Assembly (NCBI RefSeq): GCF_000423125.1
Contig: NZ_AUHJ01000020.1
Span: forward strand, 1 to 52,962
DNA: 52,962 nucleotides
Source of the DNA: Haliea salexigens DSM 19537
GTDB taxonomy: Bacteria; Pseudomonadota; Gammaproteobacteria; Pseudomonadales; Halieaceae
Reading direction: 5' to 3'
The translations under genes were made by a program, and so were the position numbers. Positions 1-50,636 of this stretch are shown here, piece after piece; the stretch's first letter is position 1; the number at the start of each line of letters is the position of its first letter. The notes below the pieces were generated by a model. That model worked only from the letters and a program-made list of their open reading frames with translations. It ran no database searches and was not told the DNA's origin.

Positions 1-66
1 ATCTCGCCACACAAAATAAGGTAGAACTGCGCGAGCTACCCCTGCCACAAGTCCTGGCCACTGCAT
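1..66 (-). CDS. Start of an unidentified gene downstream of the double-glycine peptide (cut by window edge)
   Basis: Reading leftward from an ATG ten bases after the stop of the 43-aa peptide gene, the frame stays open for 22 codons to the window edge. The residues seen begin MQWPGLVAGVARAVLPYFVW, a largely hydrophobic and aromatic stretch that could be a membrane-entry or N-terminal helix. An AGGA lies almost directly against the ATG, which is a poor spacing. A GTG six codons later has AGGA three bases upstream and is an alternative start. The very short gap suggests co-transcription with the peptide gene, so it could encode a maturation, export or immunity partner, but no family can be named from 22 residues. 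It may also be a chance open frame. Confidence 0.3.
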   Translation of the reverse strand, partial: MQWPGLVAGVARAVLPYFVWRD

Positions 67-76
67 ATCCTGTGGT

Positions 77-208
77 TCAATTGGCGCTTACGTAGTAGTA
101 GCTGTAGGCAGGCTGGTAGAGCCAGTACCAACCACCGTTCAAGGTGGCGAGTTCTTCGCTGCTCAGGGCGCTGTTGGTGTTCAGGTCGTTTACAGTGATT
201 GTGCTCAT
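77..208 (-). CDS. Small double-glycine-leader peptide, putative microcin/RiPP precursor
   Basis: A 43-residue frame starts at ATG 206-208 behind GGGGAG eight bases upstream, a good ribosome binding site. The N-terminal 26 residues look like a double-glycine leader: hydrophilic, then an amphipathic segment reading LSSEELATLNGG, matching the pattern (L..EEL..(L/I).GG) cleaved by C39-peptidase ABC transporters in microcin V and class II bacteriocins. The predicted core after GG is WYWLYQPAYSYYYVSAN, with two Trp and six Tyr in 17 residues and no Cys, Ser/Thr cluster or Lys. That composition excludes a lanthipeptide and suggests either an unmodified hydrophobic peptide or a substrate for aromatic cross-linking. 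No transporter or modification enzyme lies to the right; the other side is cut off by the window edge. The gene is real by RBS and leader logic; the product class is inference. Confidence 0.68.
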   Translation of the reverse strand: MSTITVNDLNTNSALSSEELATLNGGWYWLYQPAYSYYYVSAN

Positions 209-271
209 GGTCTATCTCCCCGGGTGTCTGTTTGGTTGGGAGTCGCTGTTTGCTGCTCCTTGCCATGGGTA

Positions 272-289
272 TTGCAGAAACAATGCCAA
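272..289 (-). promoter_or_regulatory. Candidate sigma-54 promoter for the double-glycine peptide gene
   Basis: On the minus strand this reads TTGGCATTGTTTCTGCAA. It has the invariant GG and GC dinucleotides 12 bases apart, TGGCA in the -24 box and CTGCA in the -12 box against a consensus TTGCA. It would start transcription near position 262, leaving a leader of roughly 50 bases before the ATG at 208. The two bases after TGGCA deviate from CG. Matches of this quality arise by chance, so the call is tentative. Confidence 0.3.
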
Positions 290-501
290 CTTTTCAGATA
301 CCGCCAAGAAAACTTATAACCCATTGATATTATTGAAAAAATAAAATATGGCGGCGCCCGGAATCAATTTTTCAGGAGACCTGAGCCCCCATACATCTGT
401 TACGAAAATCACAACAGTTTTTAATTATGTTGCTAAAATCACCACTTTCTGACACCCAGCCCACGCTGAATCACTGAACACGCTGCTTGCGCAGATACCC
501 T
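290..501. other. Intergenic region, locally AT-rich, no gene seen
   Basis: This stretch between the peptide gene and the HNH nuclease gene has clearly lower GC than the rest of the window, with runs of A and T around 315-350 and 400-440. It probably holds further control sequence for the leftward peptide gene. A TATAAG hexamer on the minus strand near 311-317 could be a -10 element but has no convincing -35 partner. A 34-codon plus-strand frame starting near 348 has no ribosome binding site and is not called. Confidence 0.4.
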
Positions 502-864
502 TCAATCCTTGCTGCCTTCCATGTTTGCCTTCAAATCCGCAAACGGCTGGTGGGTGGCCGCTTTGCTCTTGCTTGCCTTACTGCCGCCGTAGCGTACATA
601 AGCCTCAAACTTGCTGTGCTCTTCGTCATGACAATAGAGACAAAGTAGCTCCCAGTTACTGCCGTCGCTCGGGTTGTTGTCGTGATTGTGGTCGACATGG
701 TGCACGGTGAGTTCCGACAGGTTTCTGCGGTCGAACTCCCTGGCGCAACGGCCACAGATCCAGGGGTAGAGTTTCAACGCGCGTTCGCGGTAGCCCGACT
801 CACGTTTTGCGTTGTACTCCAGCTGTTCGGCACGCACTTGCTCAAAGCTTTTTGCAGAGGACAT
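502..864 (-). CDS. yajD: YajD-type HNH nuclease family protein
   Basis: The 120-residue product is a small HNH-fold protein of the YajD family. A CxxC pair (WICGRCAREF) near residue 35 and a second pair (LCLYCHDEEH) near residue 80 would bind the structural zinc. Between them lies the HNH core LTVHHVDHNHDNNPSDGSNW. The start is ATG at 864 with GGGAG seven bases upstream; a longer frame reaching back to 948 would run into the neighbouring peptidase gene and has no better RBS. It lies 23 bases after the M28 peptidase stop, so the two are probably co-transcribed. The family is widespread in Proteobacteria; its cellular role is not established. Nuclease activity is inferred from the fold. Confidence 0.88.
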   Translation of the reverse strand: MSSAKSFEQVRAEQLEYNAKRESGYRERALKLYPWICGRCAREFDRRNLSELTVHHVDHNHDNNPSDGSNWELLCLYCHDEEHSKFEAYVRYGGSKASKSKAATHQPFADLKANMEGSKD

Positions 865-887
865 GACGACGCTCCCGTAAACTCTGC

Positions 888-2567
888 TTAAGGTCGCGCT
901 GCCGCGCTGCTCTCGCGCACCGCCCTGAACTCCGATTCGGCACGCCAATCCGGCCAGCGCGTGGAATTCCCCAGGTCCTCCAGCAACACGCGGAACAACT
1001 CGATGTCCTGCACGGCGCCTGTGAGGTCCCAGTCAGGTGACCAGGCATCACAGGGTTTGTGATAGCAGTTGCCTACGTAGTCCGCTATCCACTGGTTGCC
1101 GGCGGCGCGGCCCCCCTCCACCAGGTCGGCGCCCCCGGCAATGCCCATCAGCAACAATACCGGCACACCGGCTCGCGCCAGGGAGAAGTGGTCTGCACGG
1201 TAGAACAGGCCATTCTCGGGGAGGTTTTCCGGCGTTACATAGCGGCCCTGCTGCGCGGCAACACGCGCCAGGTCGTCTTCCAGGCTGCTCTGGCCTTCGC
1301 CCACCAGAATCACATCCCGCGCCGCACCCGCCGTCTGCAGGATATCCAGGGTAAAGTTGGCCACCGTCGTCTCCAGCGGGTACACCGGGTCCACCGCATA
1401 GGCCCTGGACCCCACCAGGCCCGATTCCTCGGCCGTCCATAAGGCGAATACCACGCTGCGCTCCAACGGCGGGCCGGCTTTCAGTACACGGGCAATTTCC
1501 AGCACGCCGGCGGTGCCGAGTGCATCGTCATTGGCACCCGCACGCACCGTTCTGCCCTGCGCATCGGCGGGGCCTTCACCGTAGGCATCCCAGTGGGCCG
1601 AGACCATCAGCACTTCATCTGGCCGCGCGTGGCCCGGCAGCAAACCCAGTACATTGCGGCTGTCAAAGCGGGTGATTTTGACGCGTGATTGCGCGCTGAA
1701 GCGCACGCCATCCAACTCAAAAGCGCGGAAGCCTGGTTGGCGCGCCTCGCTGCGGAGTGTGGCCAGGTCGTGACCGGCCATGGCGAGCAGCTGGGTAGCG
1801 GCGCCCTCGTGGAGCCAGCCTTGCAGAGCGACCGGCACCGGGCCGCTGGTATTGCCCGCCAGCGCTACGCGTTCGCCGGCGCCAGCAGCCGCCACACTCC
1901 AATCGTAACCGGCGGCCTCGGTCTCATGAATGACCAGGGCACCCAGCGCACCGCGCCGCGCCGCCTCTTCGTACTTGTAGGCCCAGCGCCCGTAATAGGT
2001 CATGCGACGGTTGCCGAAACGCCCGGCAACGGGCTCATCGGGCGCAGCCGCGAAGTCCGGGTCGTTCACCAGGAACACAGCAATCTTGCCGGTCAGGTCG
2101 ATGTCGCCATAGTCGTCCCAGTCGCGCTCAGGCGCCGTCACCCCGAAGCCGACAAACACCAGTGGGATATCCCGGGCATCAATACGTTGCGTAGCGCGTA
2201 CCGTGCTTACCTCAATGTCTTCACCTTGCATCAGCTTTTCCTGACCCTGGGGGTAAGTGAACGCCAACTGCGGTGATTCCAGGAAGGTGCGCATCATCGG
2301 CACGGCCTGAGTCCATTGCCCATCCGCGCCGCCGGGCTCCACACCCATGGCCTCGAACTGCTCGATGAGGTAGGACACGGTTTTGTCCTCGCCGGCAGTG
2401 CCGGGGGCACGGCCGCCAAACTCGTCCGACGCCAGTACCTTGACGATTCCATGGAGACGATCTGCTTCAATTGCCTCCCTGGCGGAGGTAGCAGAACCCG
2501 TAGTTGTGGAACAGGCCACAAGCAAGCCAAGGGCAAGTAACGCGAACAGTGCGGTGCGAGCTAACAT
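888..2567 (-). CDS. M28 family metallopeptidase with PA domain, lipoprotein
   Basis: The 559-residue product begins with a lipoprotein signal peptide ending in LLVACS, so the mature protein should be lipid-anchored in the envelope, facing the periplasm or outside. A protease-associated insert occupies the region before the catalytic domain. The M28 zinc-peptidase core follows: His in SAHWDAYG (residue 325), Asp in GANDDALG, the Glu pair in WTAEESGLVG, then Asp in LDILQ and His in YRADHFS. This ordering is that of aminopeptidases releasing N-terminal residues from peptides. The chosen ATG at 2567 has GAGG six bases upstream and places the signal peptide at the N-terminus; the longer frame from 2624 would bury it. 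It is followed by the yajD gene. Substrate specificity cannot be read from the sequence. Confidence 0.9.
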   Translation of the reverse strand: MLARTALFALLALGLLVACSTTTGSATSAREAIEADRLHGIVKVLASDEFGGRAPGTAGEDKTVSYLIEQFEAMGVEPGGADGQWTQAVPMMRTFLESPQLAFTYPQGQEKLMQGEDIEVSTVRATQRIDARDIPLVFVGFGVTAPERDWDDYGDIDLTGKIAVFLVNDPDFAAAPDEPVAGRFGNRRMTYYGRWAYKYEEAARRGALGALVIHETEAAGYDWSVAAAGAGERVALAGNTSGPVPVALQGWLHEGAATQLLAMAGHDLATLRSEARQPGFRAFELDGVRFSAQSRVKITRFDSRNVLGLLPGHARPDEVLMVSAHWDAYGEGPADAQGRTVRAGANDDALGTAGVLEIARVLKAGPPLERSVVFALWTAEESGLVGSRAYAVDPVYPLETTVANFTLDILQTAGAARDVILVGEGQSSLEDDLARVAAQQGRYVTPENLPENGLFYRADHFSLARAGVPVLLLMGIAGGADLVEGGRAAGNQWIADYVGNCYHKPCDAWSPDWDLTGAVQDIELFRVLLEDLGNSTRWPDWRAESEFRAVRESSAAARP

Positions 2568-3348: not shown

Positions 3349-3470
3349 CCGCTGCCGCCTTGCCTATAGACGAATGGGCTGGCTGAACATCAGTGTGCTG
3401 TCTCGCGAATGGCTGCGGGGATGCTATGTTTACCTTTACGCGCAAGCCCGCGCCCATTCCGGAGATGCCC

Positions 3471-6400
3471 ATGCCTCGCCTTGCCATCAGATACCTGGCC
3501 TGCCTCCTCACCTTGCTGGCCAGCCTGCATGCCGCCGCTGATCCGGCGGCATTGCGCTCCTGGGAAGACTGGGTACTCGAAAAGCACCCGGACCACACCT
3601 GCCCCTGGGTGGTCGCGAAGAATTCTGAACGCGTGTGCATCTGGCCCGGCCAGCTGGCGCTGGACCTGCGTGCAGACGGAATGTCCTTCAATTACCAGGT
3701 GGAGGTATTCCGCGACGACGCTTTGGTGCCGCTGCCAGGGGGCGCAGGCAACTGGCCGCTGAGGGTGATCGTGAACGGGAGCCGGGCAGCCGTTCTGGAC
3801 CGCGCCGGCACCCCTCATGCTCTGCTCCCCCGGGGCAAACACGAGATTGGCGGCCAGTTCCGTTGGCAGCGCCGGCCCGCGAGCCTGCCGCTGCCGGAGA
3901 GCATCGCCCTGCTCAAAGTCACCGAGGCCGGGCAGCCGGCAAACACGGAACGCCGGGGGGCGCAGCTTATTCTGGGGCGCGACAGCGCCGTCGCTCCGGT
4001 GAAACAGAGTAATTCGCTGCAGGTAGAGGTATTCCGCAAACTGGCAGACGGTGTGCCGATGACGCTGGAGACGCGCGTGGTCATGACCGTGAGCGGCGAA
4101 CCGCGAGAAGTTCAGTTGGGGCAGCTCGCCTGGCCGAACACGGCGCTGATGGGTATCGACTCCCCTTTGCCCGCCCGCATTGAAGACAACGGTGACCTGC
4201 GCATTCAGTTGAGCGCCGGGCGCCACACGCTGATCGCACAAGCGCGTTTTTTACAGGTCGTGGAGCAGCTGACCACTAACCGGCATGACGATGACTGGCC
4301 CGCTGTGGAATACCTGAGTTTCGCCGCCGACAGCAACCTGCGACAGGTCACACTTTCCGGGGCTCCAGGAATCGACACCTCGCAGGCACCCGTACCAGAG
4401 GAATGGAAAGCGCTTCCCACCTGGCGCCTGGGCGCGGACACTACGATGCAGATCAACACCGAGTATCGCGGCGACCAGTCGCCCGGGAACAATACCCTGT
4501 CGGTGACCCGAAACCTGTGGCTGGATTTTGACGGCGATGCGCTTACCGGTGTGGAATCCATCACAGGCGCGATGCGCAGCGAGTGGCGCCTGAACGCACA
4601 AGCCGACACCCGACTCGGCAGCGCGCAAGTGTCCGGCCATCCGGTGTTGGTGACACAGCACGCCGGCGGTGAAGGCGTGGAAATTCGCAGCCCTGAAATT
4701 GCACTGGAGGCTGTTACCCGTATCGCATCCCCCACGCAGTTCTCGGCAACGGGCTGGGAAAGCCGCGCTGACACCTTCAGCGCCACTCTGCACATCCCCC
4801 CCGGCTGGCGCGTACTGCACGCGGCCGGCGTTGAGGACATACGCGGCACATGGCTGAGCGCCTGGGACCTCTGGGACATCTTCCTGCTGCTGGTGCTGGT
4901 GGCCGCTACGCGCAAGCTCCTCGGCTTGAAGGCGGCAGCTCTGGCGATTGCCGCCCTGCTCACCGCCTACCACGAGCCGGGCATGCCCACCGCACTGCTG
5001 GCGACTCTGCTGCTGTTGCTGCCGCTCGCCGCCATCGCGCGCGGGCGAATCCGGCGCGGCGTTGCCGTCGCAACCACCCTCACCTGCATCGCCGCAGTCC
5101 TCGCCCTGGTGGCCTTTTCCATCAGCAATTTCCGCCTGGCCATCTACCCTTCTCTCGAGCGTAGTTCCGTGGGCGTCTATGATTACGCCTCTCAGTTTGA
5201 CCACAACGCGCGCTCCGTGGCCAGCGACGCTATATTGGAGAGCACTGCAGCCATGGCCCCGCGTGCGGCCGTGGAAGGGAAGATGCTCGCGGCCGAAGCC
5301 CCCCCGCGCACCCAGCAGAACGCCTACCTGCTGGGCGAGACAGACCGCGTACAAACCGGGCCGGGGGCACCGAACTGGCTCTGGAACAGTGTGACGCTAC
5401 AATCTGCCAGCCCGGTGCCGCAGGCCGCATCACTCTCCGTCATGTACAGCCCGCCATGGCTGACACGGCTTTGGCGCGTGCTCGGCGTGTTGCTCTCCCT
5501 CGCGTATGCCGGGGTGCTGATGAGCGCGCTGGTGCGCACCCTGCGCAATCCACCGGCGGCCACGGCACCGACAGCAAGCGGCGCAATGGCGGTGCCCGCA
5601 GCCAGTGCGGTGACCCTTGCGTTGACAGCCGGCCTGGTGCTTTCGGGCCTGCCACAGCCGGCCGCGGCACAAGCGTTCCCCTCGCCGCAATTACTCAACG
5701 AGCTGGAGCAGCGGCTGCTGCAGCCGCCGGCCTGTGCCCCGCACTGTGTAGCGCTCGACGAAGGGTTGATTTCAACCACGCGCCAAACCCTGAGCATAGG
5801 CTTCAGCGCCTATGCCGCAGCCGATGTGCTCCTGCAGCTTCCCACACCGCGGGAGGGGTGGCAGGTGTCCAGCCTGCAGGTAGACGGCGCTGAGGCCACC
5901 GCACGCCTGCACGAGGGCTACCTGTCCGTGCGCCTGACCCGGGGCCCCCACGTGGTCAGCCTCAGTGGAGCGCTGGAGGGCGACATGGCCAGCGTCAGCC
6001 TGCCGCTGGCGATTCACAACCTCAACACCAGCACAACCGACTGGCAACTGAGCGGCCTGGTGGATGGGCGGGTGCCGTCCGGCACGCTGTCATTGCGCGC
6101 TCTCTCGGCGGCACGCCAGGAAGCCGGCAACCGCATCAAGCCCGACCCCATAGCCCCCTTCTTCGTTGTACACCGTGAGTTTGATATCGGGCTGCAATGG
6201 CGCGTGGTCACACGAGTCACGCGGCTCGCACCCACAGCCGGGCCCGTGGCCGTGGAAGTACCGCTGTTGGCGTTTGAGCGCCCCCTGTCGGATGCCGTGA
6301 ACTTCTCCAATGGACGCGCGCGGCTGCAGTTCAGCGACCGTCAGCGAGAAATACGCTGGGAGTCCAGCATCAGCCCGCTGGGCCAGTTGCAACTGCAAGC

Positions 6401-7511
6401 GGCAGCGGGAGAGCACTATGTCGAAACCTGGCGTGTGCGGCCTTCGGCTCTGTGGCGCGTGAGTCACGAGGGGCTGCCACACACGCGCCCGTTCGGCGGC
6501 GCCGACAGCCTGCAACCGCTCTGGAAACCCTGGCCGGGTGAATCGCTCACTCTGAACTTCAGCCGACCCGAGGGTAGCGCCGGGCCCACATTCACAACAG
6601 AAGCGGTTAATCTGTCCTTCCAGCACGGTGCCGCACTGCGCCAGAGTCAGCTCAGCCTGAACGTCAAGGCCAGCATGGGGCAGGACTACCGCTTCACCTT
6701 GCCCACCGGGAGCCGCGTGACCGCCCTGAGTCACAACGGCAACGAATTGAGCCTGCCCGAAGGGAATACCATCAGCGTGTCGCTGCAACCCGGAGACCAG
6801 CTGATTGGCGTCACCTTCGAGGAGGACGGCGGCAGCGGCTGGCTGAGTGAGTCGCCCCGGGTGGAGCTGCCCGATGGCGCCAGTAATATCTCGCTCACCT
6901 ACACCCTGCCGCAGGACCGCTGGCCGCTCTACCTGAATGGTCCACCCATCGGGCCAGCCATGTTGTACTGGGGGGTCTTCTGCGTCATCGTGCTCGGCGC
7001 CCTGCTGCTGAACTGGCTGAACAAACGCCTCACGACCGGCATTCCCATCGGCCTGCCCGGTTGGCTGCTGCTGGGTATTGGGCTCTCCACGGTGAACAGC
7101 TATGGCGTACTCGTGGTTGCCGGCTTCCTGTTCCTGCTGGCGTTCAGGCAGCGTATCGACAGCGCTGCCATGAGCCGGCTGACATTCAACCTGATGCAGG
7201 TGGCCCTGGGTATTGGCGCCTTTATCGCGCTGGCTACCCTGGTCTCGGCGATTCCGCTGGGCCTGCTGTCCAGCCCCGACATGCTGGTGACCGGCAACAA
7301 CAGTTGGTCACACCTGTATAACTTCTTCCAGGACCGGGCGGCAGAGGAGCAGTTCCCCACGGCCACCGTGGTCAGCGTGAGCCTGATGGTGTACCGCGCA
7401 GTGATGCTTGCCTGGGCACTGTGGCTGGCCAACAAACTGTTGCGCTGGGTCGCGTGGGGATGGCAGGCCTACAGCAAGAACGGTGTGTGGGCGGCGAAGG
7501 CAAAGACCTGA
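3471..7511 (+). CDS. Very large membrane-anchored envelope protein of unknown function
   Basis: The 1346-residue product is not recognised as a named family. It starts with a signal peptide (LACLLTLLASLHAAA), followed by about 450 residues rich in beta-type sequence. A cluster of membrane segments lies between about residues 465 and 560, with a further helix near 665-685. Near residue 705-740 a hydrophobic stretch ends in PAAAQA, resembling a second, internal signal peptide. Another long beta-rich part follows (about 740-1150), and four C-terminal membrane segments close the protein. The start at 3471 has GGAG six bases upstream; upstream ATGs give no signal peptide at the N-terminus. The gene is isolated, followed by a decayed transporter gene. 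The layout suggests an inner-membrane protein with two large periplasmic domains; the role is unknown. Confidence 0.85.
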   Translation: MPRLAIRYLACLLTLLASLHAAADPAALRSWEDWVLEKHPDHTCPWVVAKNSERVCIWPGQLALDLRADGMSFNYQVEVFRDDALVPLPGGAGNWPLRVIVNGSRAAVLDRAGTPHALLPRGKHEIGGQFRWQRRPASLPLPESIALLKVTEAGQPANTERRGAQLILGRDSAVAPVKQSNSLQVEVFRKLADGVPMTLETRVVMTVSGEPREVQLGQLAWPNTALMGIDSPLPARIEDNGDLRIQLSAGRHTLIAQARFLQVVEQLTTNRHDDDWPAVEYLSFAADSNLRQVTLSGAPGIDTSQAPVPEEWKALPTWRLGADTTMQINTEYRGDQSPGNNTLSVTRNLWLDFDGDALTGVESITGAMRSEWRLNAQADTRLGSAQVSGHPVLVTQHAGGEGVEIRSPEIALEAVTRIASPTQFSATGWESRADTFSATLHIPPGWRVLHAAGVEDIRGTWLSAWDLWDIFLLLVLVAATRKLLGLKAAALAIAALLTAYHEPGMPTALLATLLLLLPLAAIARGRIRRGVAVATTLTCIAAVLALVAFSISNFRLAIYPSLERSSVGVYDYASQFDHNARSVASDAILESTAAMAPRAAVEGKMLAAEAPPRTQQNAYLLGETDRVQTGPGAPNWLWNSVTLQSASPVPQAASLSVMYSPPWLTRLWRVLGVLLSLAYAGVLMSALVRTLRNPPAATAPTASGAMAVPAASAVTLALTAGLVLSGLPQPAAAQAFPSPQLLNELEQRLLQPPACAPHCVALDEGLISTTRQTLSIGFSAYAAADVLLQLPTPREGWQVSSLQVDGAEATARLHEGYLSVRLTRGPHVVSLSGALEGDMASVSLPLAIHNLNTSTTDWQLSGLVDGRVPSGTLSLRALSAARQEAGNRIKPDPIAPFFVVHREFDIGLQWRVVTRVTRLAPTAGPVAVEVPLLAFERPLSDAVNFSNGRARLQFSDRQREIRWESSISPLGQLQLQAAAGEHYVETWRVRPSALWRVSHEGLPHTRPFGGADSLQPLWKPWPGESLTLNFSRPEGSAGPTFTTEAVNLSFQHGAALRQSQLSLNVKASMGQDYRFTLPTGSRVTALSHNGNELSLPEGNTISVSLQPGDQLIGVTFEEDGGSGWLSESPRVELPDGASNISLTYTLPQDRWPLYLNGPPIGPAMLYWGVFCVIVLGALLLNWLNKRLTTGIPIGLPGWLLLGIGLSTVNSYGVLVVAGFLFLLAFRQRIDSAAMSRLTFNLMQVALGIGAFIALATLVSAIPLGLLSSPDMLVTGNNSWSHLYNFFQDRAAEEQFPTATVVSVSLMVYRAVMLAWALWLANKLLRWVAWGWQAYSKNGVWAAKAKT

Positions 7512-49284: not shown

Positions 49285-50636
49285 CGCCAAGCGCCCCGGC
49301 GCCACTGGGCCTGATCATCGACCCCGACGGGGACACGGTCCAGTCACTTTCTACCTTGCTCACGGACAAGGGCTTTGAGGTGCTGCACTGCAGTTCCATC
49401 GCCGAGAGCCGGGCGGCCCTCAAGGACAAGGCCAGCACTACCGCAGTAGCCTTCGTTGCGCTGGACCTGCCGGATGGTGACGGGCTTGAACTGCTGGGCG
49501 AAGAAAGCCTGCTGCAGGATCACACCGATGTCGCCCTGATGCATCACGACGACGACCCGGCGCGGGCGCAGCGCGGCATACGCGAGCAGGCGAGCTACTT
49601 TTTCCGCAAACCACTGGACACCGAGTTCGTCTCGGAACTGCTGGAGGACATCAGTCAGGAATATGAACAGCAGCGCACGAAGGCCGGTGTCGACGACAGT
49701 GTCGCCATCGACCAGTTCGGCATGATGCGCGGCAACTCCCCGGCCATGCGCAAGCTCTATCGCGTGGTACGCAAAGTGGCACCCTCCAACGCCACCGTGC
49801 TGGTCGTTGGCGAGAGCGGCACCGGGAAAGAGCTGGCCGCGCAAACGCTGCACCAGATGTCCGGCTCCAGCGGCCCCTTCGTGGCCATGAACTGTGGCGC
49901 CATTGCCAGCGAGCTCGCCGAAAGTGAACTCTTTGGCCACGAAAAGGGCAGCTTCAGCGGCGCCGAACGACGCCACGCGGGCTACTTCGAAAGGGCCGAA
50001 GGAGGCACGCTGCTGCTGGATGAAGTGGGTGAAATGCCGCTGGACCTGCAGGTCAAGTTGCTGCGCGTTCTGGAAACCGGCAAGTTCCGCCGTGTGGGTG
50101 GCACACAGGACCTGACCATGAATGTGCGCTTCCTCGCCGCCACTAACCGCGACCCGGAAACGGCCATTCGCGACGGCCTGCTGCGCGAGGACCTCTACTT
50201 CCGTATCGCCCAGTTCTGTCTGCGCATGCCGCCTTTGCGCGAACGTGAGCGCGACGTTGCCGGCCTCGCACATGCGTTTTTACATGAGCTTAACGCCGAA
50301 CACGACAGCGCGAAGCGTTTCTCGCATGATGCCATCGAAGCGATTGTCGCCTACCCGTGGCCGGGCAATGTGCGCGAACTGAAAAGTGCTGTGGAACGGG
50401 CCTACATCCTAGCGGAACAGACGCTGGAGCCGGAGCATCTGCCTGAGGGGCAGATTGAGCAGGCCGGCGAGTATCTGCGCATCTCGGTGGGTGAATCTCT
50501 GCATCAAACCGAAAAGCAGCAAATCCTGGCCACCATCGACGCCTGCGACGGCAACAAGAAGGAGGCGGCCGAGGCACTCGGCATTGCTCTGAAAACGCTG
50601 TACAACAAACTCAAGGAATACGACGAAGACGACTGA
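49278..50636 (+). CDS. Sigma-54-dependent response regulator (NtrC family)
   Basis: The 452-residue product has a receiver domain (about 10-125): acidic pocket LIIDPDGD, phospho-acceptor Asp63 in [11 protein letters not shown] and the conserved Lys in YFFRKPLD. An AAA+ activator domain follows, with Walker [10 protein letters not shown] near residue 178, Walker [18 protein letters not shown] and [18 protein letters not shown] Fis-type HTH closes the protein ([20 protein letters not shown]). The sigma-54 contact loop reads GSFSGA at residues 224-229 instead of GAFTGA. No histidine kinase is in the window. GTG 49278 overlaps the crotonase stop by seven bases. The likely nearby target is the sigma-54 promoter before the double-BON gene. 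Confidence 0.93.

What the first reader, a model, noticed from the sequence alone, without database searches (positions are those of the whole stretch)
77..208. Tiny double-glycine-leader gene with an eight-aromatic, 17-residue core
The sequence shows a good RBS, a 26-residue leader ending LATLNGG, and the core WYWLYQPAYSYYYVSAN with two Trp and six Tyr. Double-glycine leaders mark microcins, class II bacteriocins and several RiPP classes. The core lacks Cys and Lys, contains only two scattered Ser and no Thr, and does not match any peptide I know. Closely spaced aromatics (W-Y-W, Y-S-Y-Y-Y) are the kind of substrate on which radical SAM or P450 enzymes make aryl cross-links; that is inference. 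The gene is too short for routine gene callers, so it may be unannotated.
Basis: partly seen in the sequence, partly recalled or inferred. Interest (0 to 1): 0.8.

Follow-up and report, generated by a model that had tools for sequence, protein, structure and literature searches.

The report
IS-truncated secreted-peptide gene of an export island
The tiny gene is the front half of a normal 70-residue exported-peptide gene cut short by a jumping element, but its intact sister copies sit in a roughly 25-kb cluster that looks like a little-described, tightly regulated machine for processing and exporting small peptides.

Summary
The ORF exists on the minus strand (77-208), but its "17-residue core" is an artefact. 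Window 1-91 is the end of an IS66-family element; it supplies the last four residues (VSAN) and the stop. The other 39 codons are the 5' part of a 70-residue double-glycine precursor. The same genome has two intact copies on contig C24, and two other assemblies carry the family. The true core is 44 residues (WYWLYQPAYSYYYNPFVSTMQSSWASRG[T/A]SFDTQHNNFISFLRS) and looks under purifying selection.

The window and C24 are very probably two sides of one site: in a relative (G007) both flanks lie about 9 bp apart. The island encodes TolC, FHA, HlyD, a PpiC-type isomerase, an exporter with two cNMP domains and an intact-looking C39 peptidase, and a sigma-54 activator, plus Ser/Thr kinase, PP2C, CHAT, OmpA/TPR and a two-partner exoprotein. 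Sigma-54-like boxes precede all eight copies whose upstream DNA I had. The six-gene export module recurs in order in five other genomes, two of them with different cargo behind a homologous leader.

No radical-SAM, P450 or YcaO match appeared among the proteins scanned. Best reading: a disrupted cargo gene of a sigma-54-controlled, perhaps phospho-regulated peptide-export system; the peptide's function is open.

The parts
1..91 (.). end of an IS66-family insertion element (contig ends inside it); terminal bases ...GGCGCTTAC
   Evidence: window 1-95 identical to G000:C11:1205-1299, where an IS66 transposase ORF precedes it (PF03050 E 2.3e-92); the flanks differ after base 91 apart from four shared bases taken as chance
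77..91 (-). IS-derived codons V-S-A-N-stop that close the ORF
   Evidence: GTAAGCGCCAATTGA
92..208 (-). truncated 5' part (39 codons) of a double-glycine precursor peptide gene, copy A
   Evidence: 86% identical to intact copy B over query residues 1-42
131..208 (-). 26-residue leader MSTITVNDLNTNSALSSEELATLNGG
   Evidence: aligned with other leaders
92..130 (-). first 13 residues of the native core, WYWLYQPAYSYYY
   Evidence: in the intact copies identical except one Tyr to Phe in G003
216..221 (-). GGGGAG ribosome-binding-site-like stretch
   Evidence: upstream bases printed
272..290 (-). sigma-54-type -24/-12 box GTTGGCATTGTTTCTGCAA, about 80 bases before the ATG
   Evidence: same kind of box before the two intact copies and their relatives
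1..472 (.). window-side end of the export island (rest on contig C24); homology with the empty site of G007 resumes at 473
   Evidence: local alignment, boundary approximate
502..948 (-). HNH-domain gene, flank of the island (present next to the empty site in G007)
   Evidence: PF01844 E 1.3e-12

Best explanation
The finding is copy A of a small family of exported-peptide genes, cut after codon 39 by an IS66-family element, so the odd short core is an insertion artefact and the copy is probably a pseudogene. Intact copies B and C (contig C24) make 70-residue precursors. Proposed mechanism: the sigma-54 activator encoded at the end of the export module switches on the peptide genes through -24/-12 boxes; the leader is recognised by the C39 domain of the cNMP-C39-ABC exporter, cut after Gly-Gly, and the 44-residue aromatic core is exported through HlyD and TolC, helped by a PpiC-type isomerase. 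Two cNMP-type domains and a kinase/phosphatase/FHA trio probably gate export. Shown by sequence: IS truncation, intact homologues, conserved module, C39 catalytic motifs, boxes. Inferred: cleavage, export, gating, and that the core is not enzymatically modified. My best guess for the end product is a surface or extracellular peptide acting with the two-partner exoprotein, CHAT protein and OmpA/TPR protein of the same island (about 0.35), ahead of bacteriocin (0.3) and signal (0.2).
For: IS. Intact paralogues C24:224-433 and 761-970. Relatives in G003 (contig length equal to Halieaceae UBA5044 contig DIBU01000008.1) and MAG Co_bin.268. Selection: in the 44-codon core, synonymous exceed nonsynonymous codon differences in 15 of 15 pairs of the six full-core copies (7-20 against 1-6; no formal dN/dS test); within G000, copies B and C differ by 14 nonsynonymous of 26 leader codons but 1 of 44 core codons. 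Module genes; the same six in the same order in G003, G008, G009, G335, G302. C39 Cys, His and Asp motifs kept in 8 of 8 exporters aligned (their catalytic meaning is recalled). Sigma-54-type boxes before 8 of 8 copies of this family in three organisms and 7 of 12 cargo genes of G008/G009, the other five each following a boxed gene on the same strand. Leaders of the two cargo types align over 26 columns up to GG, E 2.5e-5, probability 75%; cores do not align. Empty site in G007.
Against: The physical join window-IS66-C24 is not in the assembly; no third 3' half of the gene was found in G000. Copy A could still be translated and exported. Nothing here shows cleavage or export. In the stretches fetched around the module, STK, PP2C, CHAT, OmpA/TPR and the two-partner genes had no match in G008, G009, G335 or G302, so their tie to export is by neighbourhood in G000/G003 only. 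The structure model of an intact precursor (Co_bin.268 copy) is uninformative (mean pLDDT 45.5). No GG peptide was found on the module contigs of G335 and G302, both of which end close to the activator gene.
Confidence: 0.87

Rival explanations
1. The peptide family is a class II microcin/bacteriocin: the 44-residue aromatic core kills related bacteria after GG cleavage and export; copy A was lost by IS insertion as can happen to costly toxin genes.
For: GG leader plus C39 exporter with HlyD and TolC; weak matches to lactococcin-like (PF04369, 16.9-19.0 bits), TIGR01847 bacteriocin signal (14.4 of 15.7 bits) and CTB bacteriocin (14.4 of 32 bits).
Against: All those matches are below the curated cut-offs. 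I saw no immunity candidate; the next larger gene is an OmpA/TPR protein (but no systematic search for a short immunity ORF was made). The core changes little between copies and species.
Confidence: 0.3
2. The window ORF is a functional recent innovation: the IS66 end created a short aromatic peptide that is exported as a 17-mer.
For: RBS, leader, sigma-54 box and GG site are intact upstream of the insertion; the exporter is present.
Against: Stop and last four residues come from the IS; seen in one genome only; intact paralogues remain.
Confidence: 0.05
3. The peptide is a RiPP whose aromatic residues are cross-linked by a radical SAM or P450 enzyme encoded elsewhere.
For: Dense aromatics W-Y-W and Y-S-Y-Y-Y; the PpiC-type protein is distantly like TIGR04500, a putative peptide maturation system protein (94.4 of 180 bits); TIGR04500 is listed among genes near graspetide ATP-grasp loci (PMC8939145, passages read).
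Against: No such enzyme among the island and flank proteins scanned; TIGR04149 match of the window ORF below cut-off and mainly in the leader, and not listed for the two intact copies at E up to 1. The rest of the genome was not searched.
Confidence: 0.07
4. The peptide is a population signal, like pheromone cargo of other peptidase-containing exporters or the proposed HetC cargo.
For: cNMP-type sensor domains on the exporter, several near-identical gene copies, core conserved across species; HetC precedent (PMC10986499, abstract and passages read).
Against: No dedicated receptor recognised among the island proteins scanned.
Confidence: 0.2

Closest known systems
HetC of Nostoc PCC 7120 (peptidase-containing ABC exporter with an N-terminal cNMP-type domain; PMC10986499, abstract and passages read)
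   Same: cNMP-type domain, C39 peptidase and ABC exporter in one chain; export of a small peptide postulated
   Different: here two cNMP matches, a gene row with TolC, FHA, HlyD, PpiC protein and sigma-54 activator, candidate peptide genes nearby, gammaproteobacterial host; ligand unknown; sequences were not compared
Class II microcin / CvaB-type export (PMC10233263, PMC9746304 seen in search listings only)
   Same: GG leader, C39 ABC exporter, HlyD, TolC (general anatomy recalled)
   Different: core matches no Pfam or NCBIfam family above cut-off, no immunity gene noticed, sigma-54 boxes and kinase/phosphatase/FHA proteins alongside
Threonine phosphorylation pathway of type VI secretion (PpkA-PppA-Fha; PMC5995506, abstract read)
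   Same: the same trio of protein kinds near a secretion machine: Ser/Thr kinase, PP2C phosphatase, FHA protein
   Different: here beside a type I peptide exporter; regulation by analogy only; kinase and phosphatase are not in the conserved six-gene core
NHLP/NHLM peptide export systems
   Same: C39 ABC exporter near GG-type leader peptides
   Different: exporter scores 579.5 bits against a cut-off of 853.3 for TIGR03796; no NHLP leader family listed for the peptides

Membership tests
Peptidase-containing (C39) ABC exporter with GG-peptide cargo | C39 peptidase, ABC membrane and ATPase domains in one protein | tested here: met
   PF03412 1.7e-40, PF00664 1.6e-41, PF00005 8.3e-36
Peptidase-containing (C39) ABC exporter with GG-peptide cargo | catalytic Cys, His, Asp of C39 present | tested here: met
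   Cys, His, Asp motifs kept in 8 of 8 aligned exporters; motif meaning recalled
Peptidase-containing (C39) ABC exporter with GG-peptide cargo | cleavage of cargo after GG | not testable with these tools
   needs a cleavage assay
IS66-family insertion (cause of the truncation) | IS66 transposase linked to the same end sequence | tested here: met
   L007:3-917 PF03050 2.3e-92, PF13817 8.4e-17; shared end with window
IS66-family insertion (cause of the truncation) | target duplication (8 bp, recalled) and second end | tested here: inconclusive
   contig ends inside the element; no third 3' half of the gene found in the assembly
Class II microcin / bacteriocin | match to a curated bacteriocin family | tested here: not met
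   PF04369 16.9-19.0 of 23.1 bits; TIGR01847 14.4 of 15.7
Class II microcin / bacteriocin | killing activity with cognate immunity gene | not testable with these tools
   activity needs an assay; immunity gene not searched for systematically
Radical-SAM-modified GG RiPP (TIGR04149) | precursor above family cut-off and a radical SAM partner | tested here: not met
   15.4 of 25 bits; no radical SAM match in scanned island and flank proteins; genome elsewhere not searched
NHLP bacteriocin export (TIGR03796) | exporter above curated cut-off | tested here: not met
   579.5 of 853.3 bits
TIGR04500 peptide-maturation PpiC-related family | score above cut-off | tested here: not met
   94.4 of 180 bits; has PPIC-type rotamase domain PF00639
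HetC-like exporter | cNMP-type domain N-terminal to C39 and ABC | tested here: met
   PF00027 4.8e-31, two stretches, before the C39 match
HetC-like exporter | sequence relationship to HetC itself | not tested
   HetC sequence not fetched

The most novel reading that the evidence does not exclude
A distinct, undescribed Gram-negative peptide-export system: a fixed six-gene module (TolC, FHA, HlyD, PpiC-type, two-cNMP/C39/ABC exporter, sigma-54 activator) that exports interchangeable cargo families through one homologous leader, with transcription set by sigma-54 and export gated by nucleotide binding and Ser/Thr phosphorylation, carried here on a movable island together with a two-partner exoprotein, CHAT protein and kinase.
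Probability: 0.4. Interest if true: 0.62.

Novelty: new variant of a known kind. Interest (0 to 1): 0.45.

Why it matters
As handed over, the short aromatic peptide is not a likely natural product, which saves a wrong chase for cross-linking chemistry. What remains is a rare, conserved peptide family in two or three gene copies per genome, and an export module with three possible layers of control (sigma-54, cNMP-type sensor domains, kinase/phosphatase/FHA) that I did not recognise in the titles and abstract openings my paper searches listed. Different cargo behind one homologous leader would make the module a handle for finding unannotated exported peptides.

Tried and rejected
Rejected: chance ORF (conserved homologues); complete gene (IS66 end); known phage or plasmid gene (tblastn of the intact precursor gave only weak matches: 14 plasmid records, best E 1, and 5 phage records, best E 2, none covering 80%); a maturase near by. 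Little came of the structure model (mean pLDDT 45.5), of a search for the aromatic peptide across the order (1 of 293 genomes, the window's own), and of a search for the G008/G009 cargo type across the class (0 of 369; the control run matched 3 of 11 genomes: G008, G009 and, weakly, G335). In one search, 22 of 58 genomes matched at E up to 1, but only G000 and G003 below 1e-30; the next was G044 at 0.0016 with an in-frame stop, and I dropped it and the weaker ones. The pattern was made from the three sites it found, so it shows rarity (3 in the genome, 0 in the reversed control), not independent support. Box counts were first taken on 11 G008/G009 genes and redone on 12. Paper searches; I recognised no listed paper as describing this module, but nearly all hits were seen as listings only, three papers were opened, and the library lacks many journals.

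Full report
OBSERVATION. The window is the whole contig C19 of a 76-contig genome, so the ORF sits at a contig end. Window 1-95 is identical to C11:1205-1299; on C11 this end follows an ORF with the IS66 transposase domains. The two flanks share four bases (GTAG) that I take as chance; homology of the window to an intact gene begins at base 92, right after ...GGCGCTTAC (that IS66 elements end in TTAC is recalled). The ORF's last 15 bases are IS sequence and give VSAN-stop. So 39 codons are native; four plus the stop are not.

INTACT RELATIVES. The same genome has two intact copies on contig C24, at 224-433 and 761-970, 70 residues each, with cores that differ at one position. G003 of the same genus shows two copies (one cut by a contig end), and MAG Co_bin.268 has two complete copies and one cut by a contig end. 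G003's contig has the same length as Halieaceae UBA5044 contig DIBU01000008.1, so I take them as the same. The family looks rare: no other convincing match in 58 relatives, in 293 genomes of the order (only the window's own), or in genome contigs (3 loci in 2 assemblies; that scan used two short motifs only). The copies fall into two leader types shared by the three bacteria, while the cores stay nearly the same. In the 44-codon core, the 15 pairs of the six full-core copies show 7-20 synonymous and 1-6 nonsynonymous codon differences, synonymous being more in 15 of 15; G000 copies B and C differ by 14 nonsynonymous codons of 26 in the leader but by 1 of 44 in the core. I read this as purifying selection, probably with gene conversion inside genomes; no formal test was run.

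WHERE THE WINDOW BELONGS. G007, of the same genus, has the M28 and HNH genes of the window directly beside the genes that lie to the right of the C24 cluster. Homology to the window stops at L091:4439 (window 473) and homology to C24 starts at L091:4449 (C24 25325): 9 bases apart, from local alignments. In G003 the HNH side (contig C9) begins inside a peptide copy and overlaps the end of the cluster contig by 23 bases. Hence window and C24 are very probably the two sides of one island of about 25.7 kb plus the IS66 element. In Co_bin.268 the array has a different left neighbourhood (gene identities there judged by eye), so the island appears to sit elsewhere.

THE ISLAND. From the peptides onward: OmpA/TPR protein; Ser/Thr kinase with Sel1 repeats; CHAT protein; two-partner exoprotein with TPS domain; its ShlB/POTRA transporter; on the other strand PP2C and an unrecognised 558-residue protein with a lipoprotein-like start; then a TolC-type OEP; FHA protein; HlyD; a PPIC-type isomerase; a 1023-residue protein with two cNMP-binding matches, C39 peptidase, ABC membrane and ATPase domains; and a sigma-54 activator. 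HlyD of G000 was not scanned with Pfam; it is 47-48% identical to the G008/G009 proteins, of which the G009 one matches PF13437. The C39 domain keeps Cys, His and Asp motifs in 8 of 8 exporters aligned.

THE MODULE IS GENERAL. TolC, FHA, HlyD, PpiC, exporter and activator occur in the same order in G000, G003, G008, G009, G335 and G302; the exporter of G000 is 58-60% identical to that of the last four. Among 120 family genomes the near-full-length close matches were G000, G003, G008 and G009, with a 250-residue fragment at 91% in G100; among 369 genomes of the class 8 matched the cNMP-C39 part at E up to 1e-40: G000, two above 50% identity (G335, G302) and five at 29-34%. G008 and G009 carry arrays of GG peptides beside the module with a different core type (...VTNNQAIxGGNGxxYAPVxQxQxQ...). 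A profile comparison of the two cargo types aligns the leader alone, 26 columns ending at GG plus a few residues, with E 2.5e-5 and probability 75%; the profiles are shallow. Two peptides of the second type match no Pfam or NCBIfam family at E up to 1. G335 has two GG-leader genes beside a PP2C-like frame on another contig (PP2C judged by eye). In the stretches fetched around the module of G008, G009, G335 and G302 the kinase, PP2C, CHAT, OmpA/TPR and two-partner proteins found no match.

SIGMA-54 BOXES. The form TGGCAY-N6-TGC lies 80-97 bases before 8 of 8 copies of the aromatic family whose upstream DNA was at hand, and 64-107 bases before 7 of 12 cargo genes of G008/G009; each of the five without it follows a boxed gene on the same strand. 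In the window plus C24 the form occurs 6 times: three before the peptide genes, one before the unrecognised lipoprotein-like gene upstream of PP2C, two elsewhere. The -24/-12 consensus is recalled.

FUNCTION. Cleavage after GG and export by the adjacent machine follow from the domain anatomy; they are inferred, not shown. HetC, the closest published architecture I found, needs its cNMP-type domain in vivo and binds ppGpp in vitro (PMC10986499, abstract and passages read). The kinase, PP2C and FHA trio recalls the threonine phosphorylation pathway of type VI secretion (PMC5995506, abstract read); here that is analogy. I noticed no immunity gene and no maturase among the proteins scanned. With several near-identical copies and a conserved, non-diversifying core, I lean to a surface or extracellular working peptide rather than a toxin in an arms race, but hold this weakly.

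VERDICT. The handed-over feature is an insertion artefact in a real gene family. The interest moves to the intact family and its export module: a new variant of peptidase-containing exporter systems.

Noticed in passing
L095 (MAG Co_bin.268), contig end at 10117: The contig ends exactly after codon 39 of the peptide gene, the same base at which IS66 sits in the window. The last 118 bases equal the other copy, so an assembly overlap may explain it, but a second insertion at the same spot is not excluded.
   Followed up: partly
G000:C24 14126 (-) (in L006): A further sigma-54-like box (GCTGGCATCTTTTCTGCAAT) precedes the unrecognised 558-residue lipoprotein-like gene upstream of PP2C, suggesting one regulon with the peptides.
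   Followed up: no
L083 (G009) and L085 (G008): Arrays of GG peptides of about 100 residues with a conserved NNQAIxGGNGxxYAPVxQxQxQ core; another type with NNYETxNYIDxxIxQTVNQNQLN on the opposite strand.
   Followed up: partly
G335:C262 (L114): Two GG-leader genes (KDLAESxxLDxxAMxAVxGG) beside a PP2C-like frame, on a contig apart from the export module.
   Followed up: no
window 49677-50447 (+): A stretch 41% identical to the island's sigma-54 activator over 261 residues, so probably another such activator.
   Followed up: no
window 3393-7511 (+): 1372-residue ORF with no Pfam match at 1e-5.
   Followed up: no
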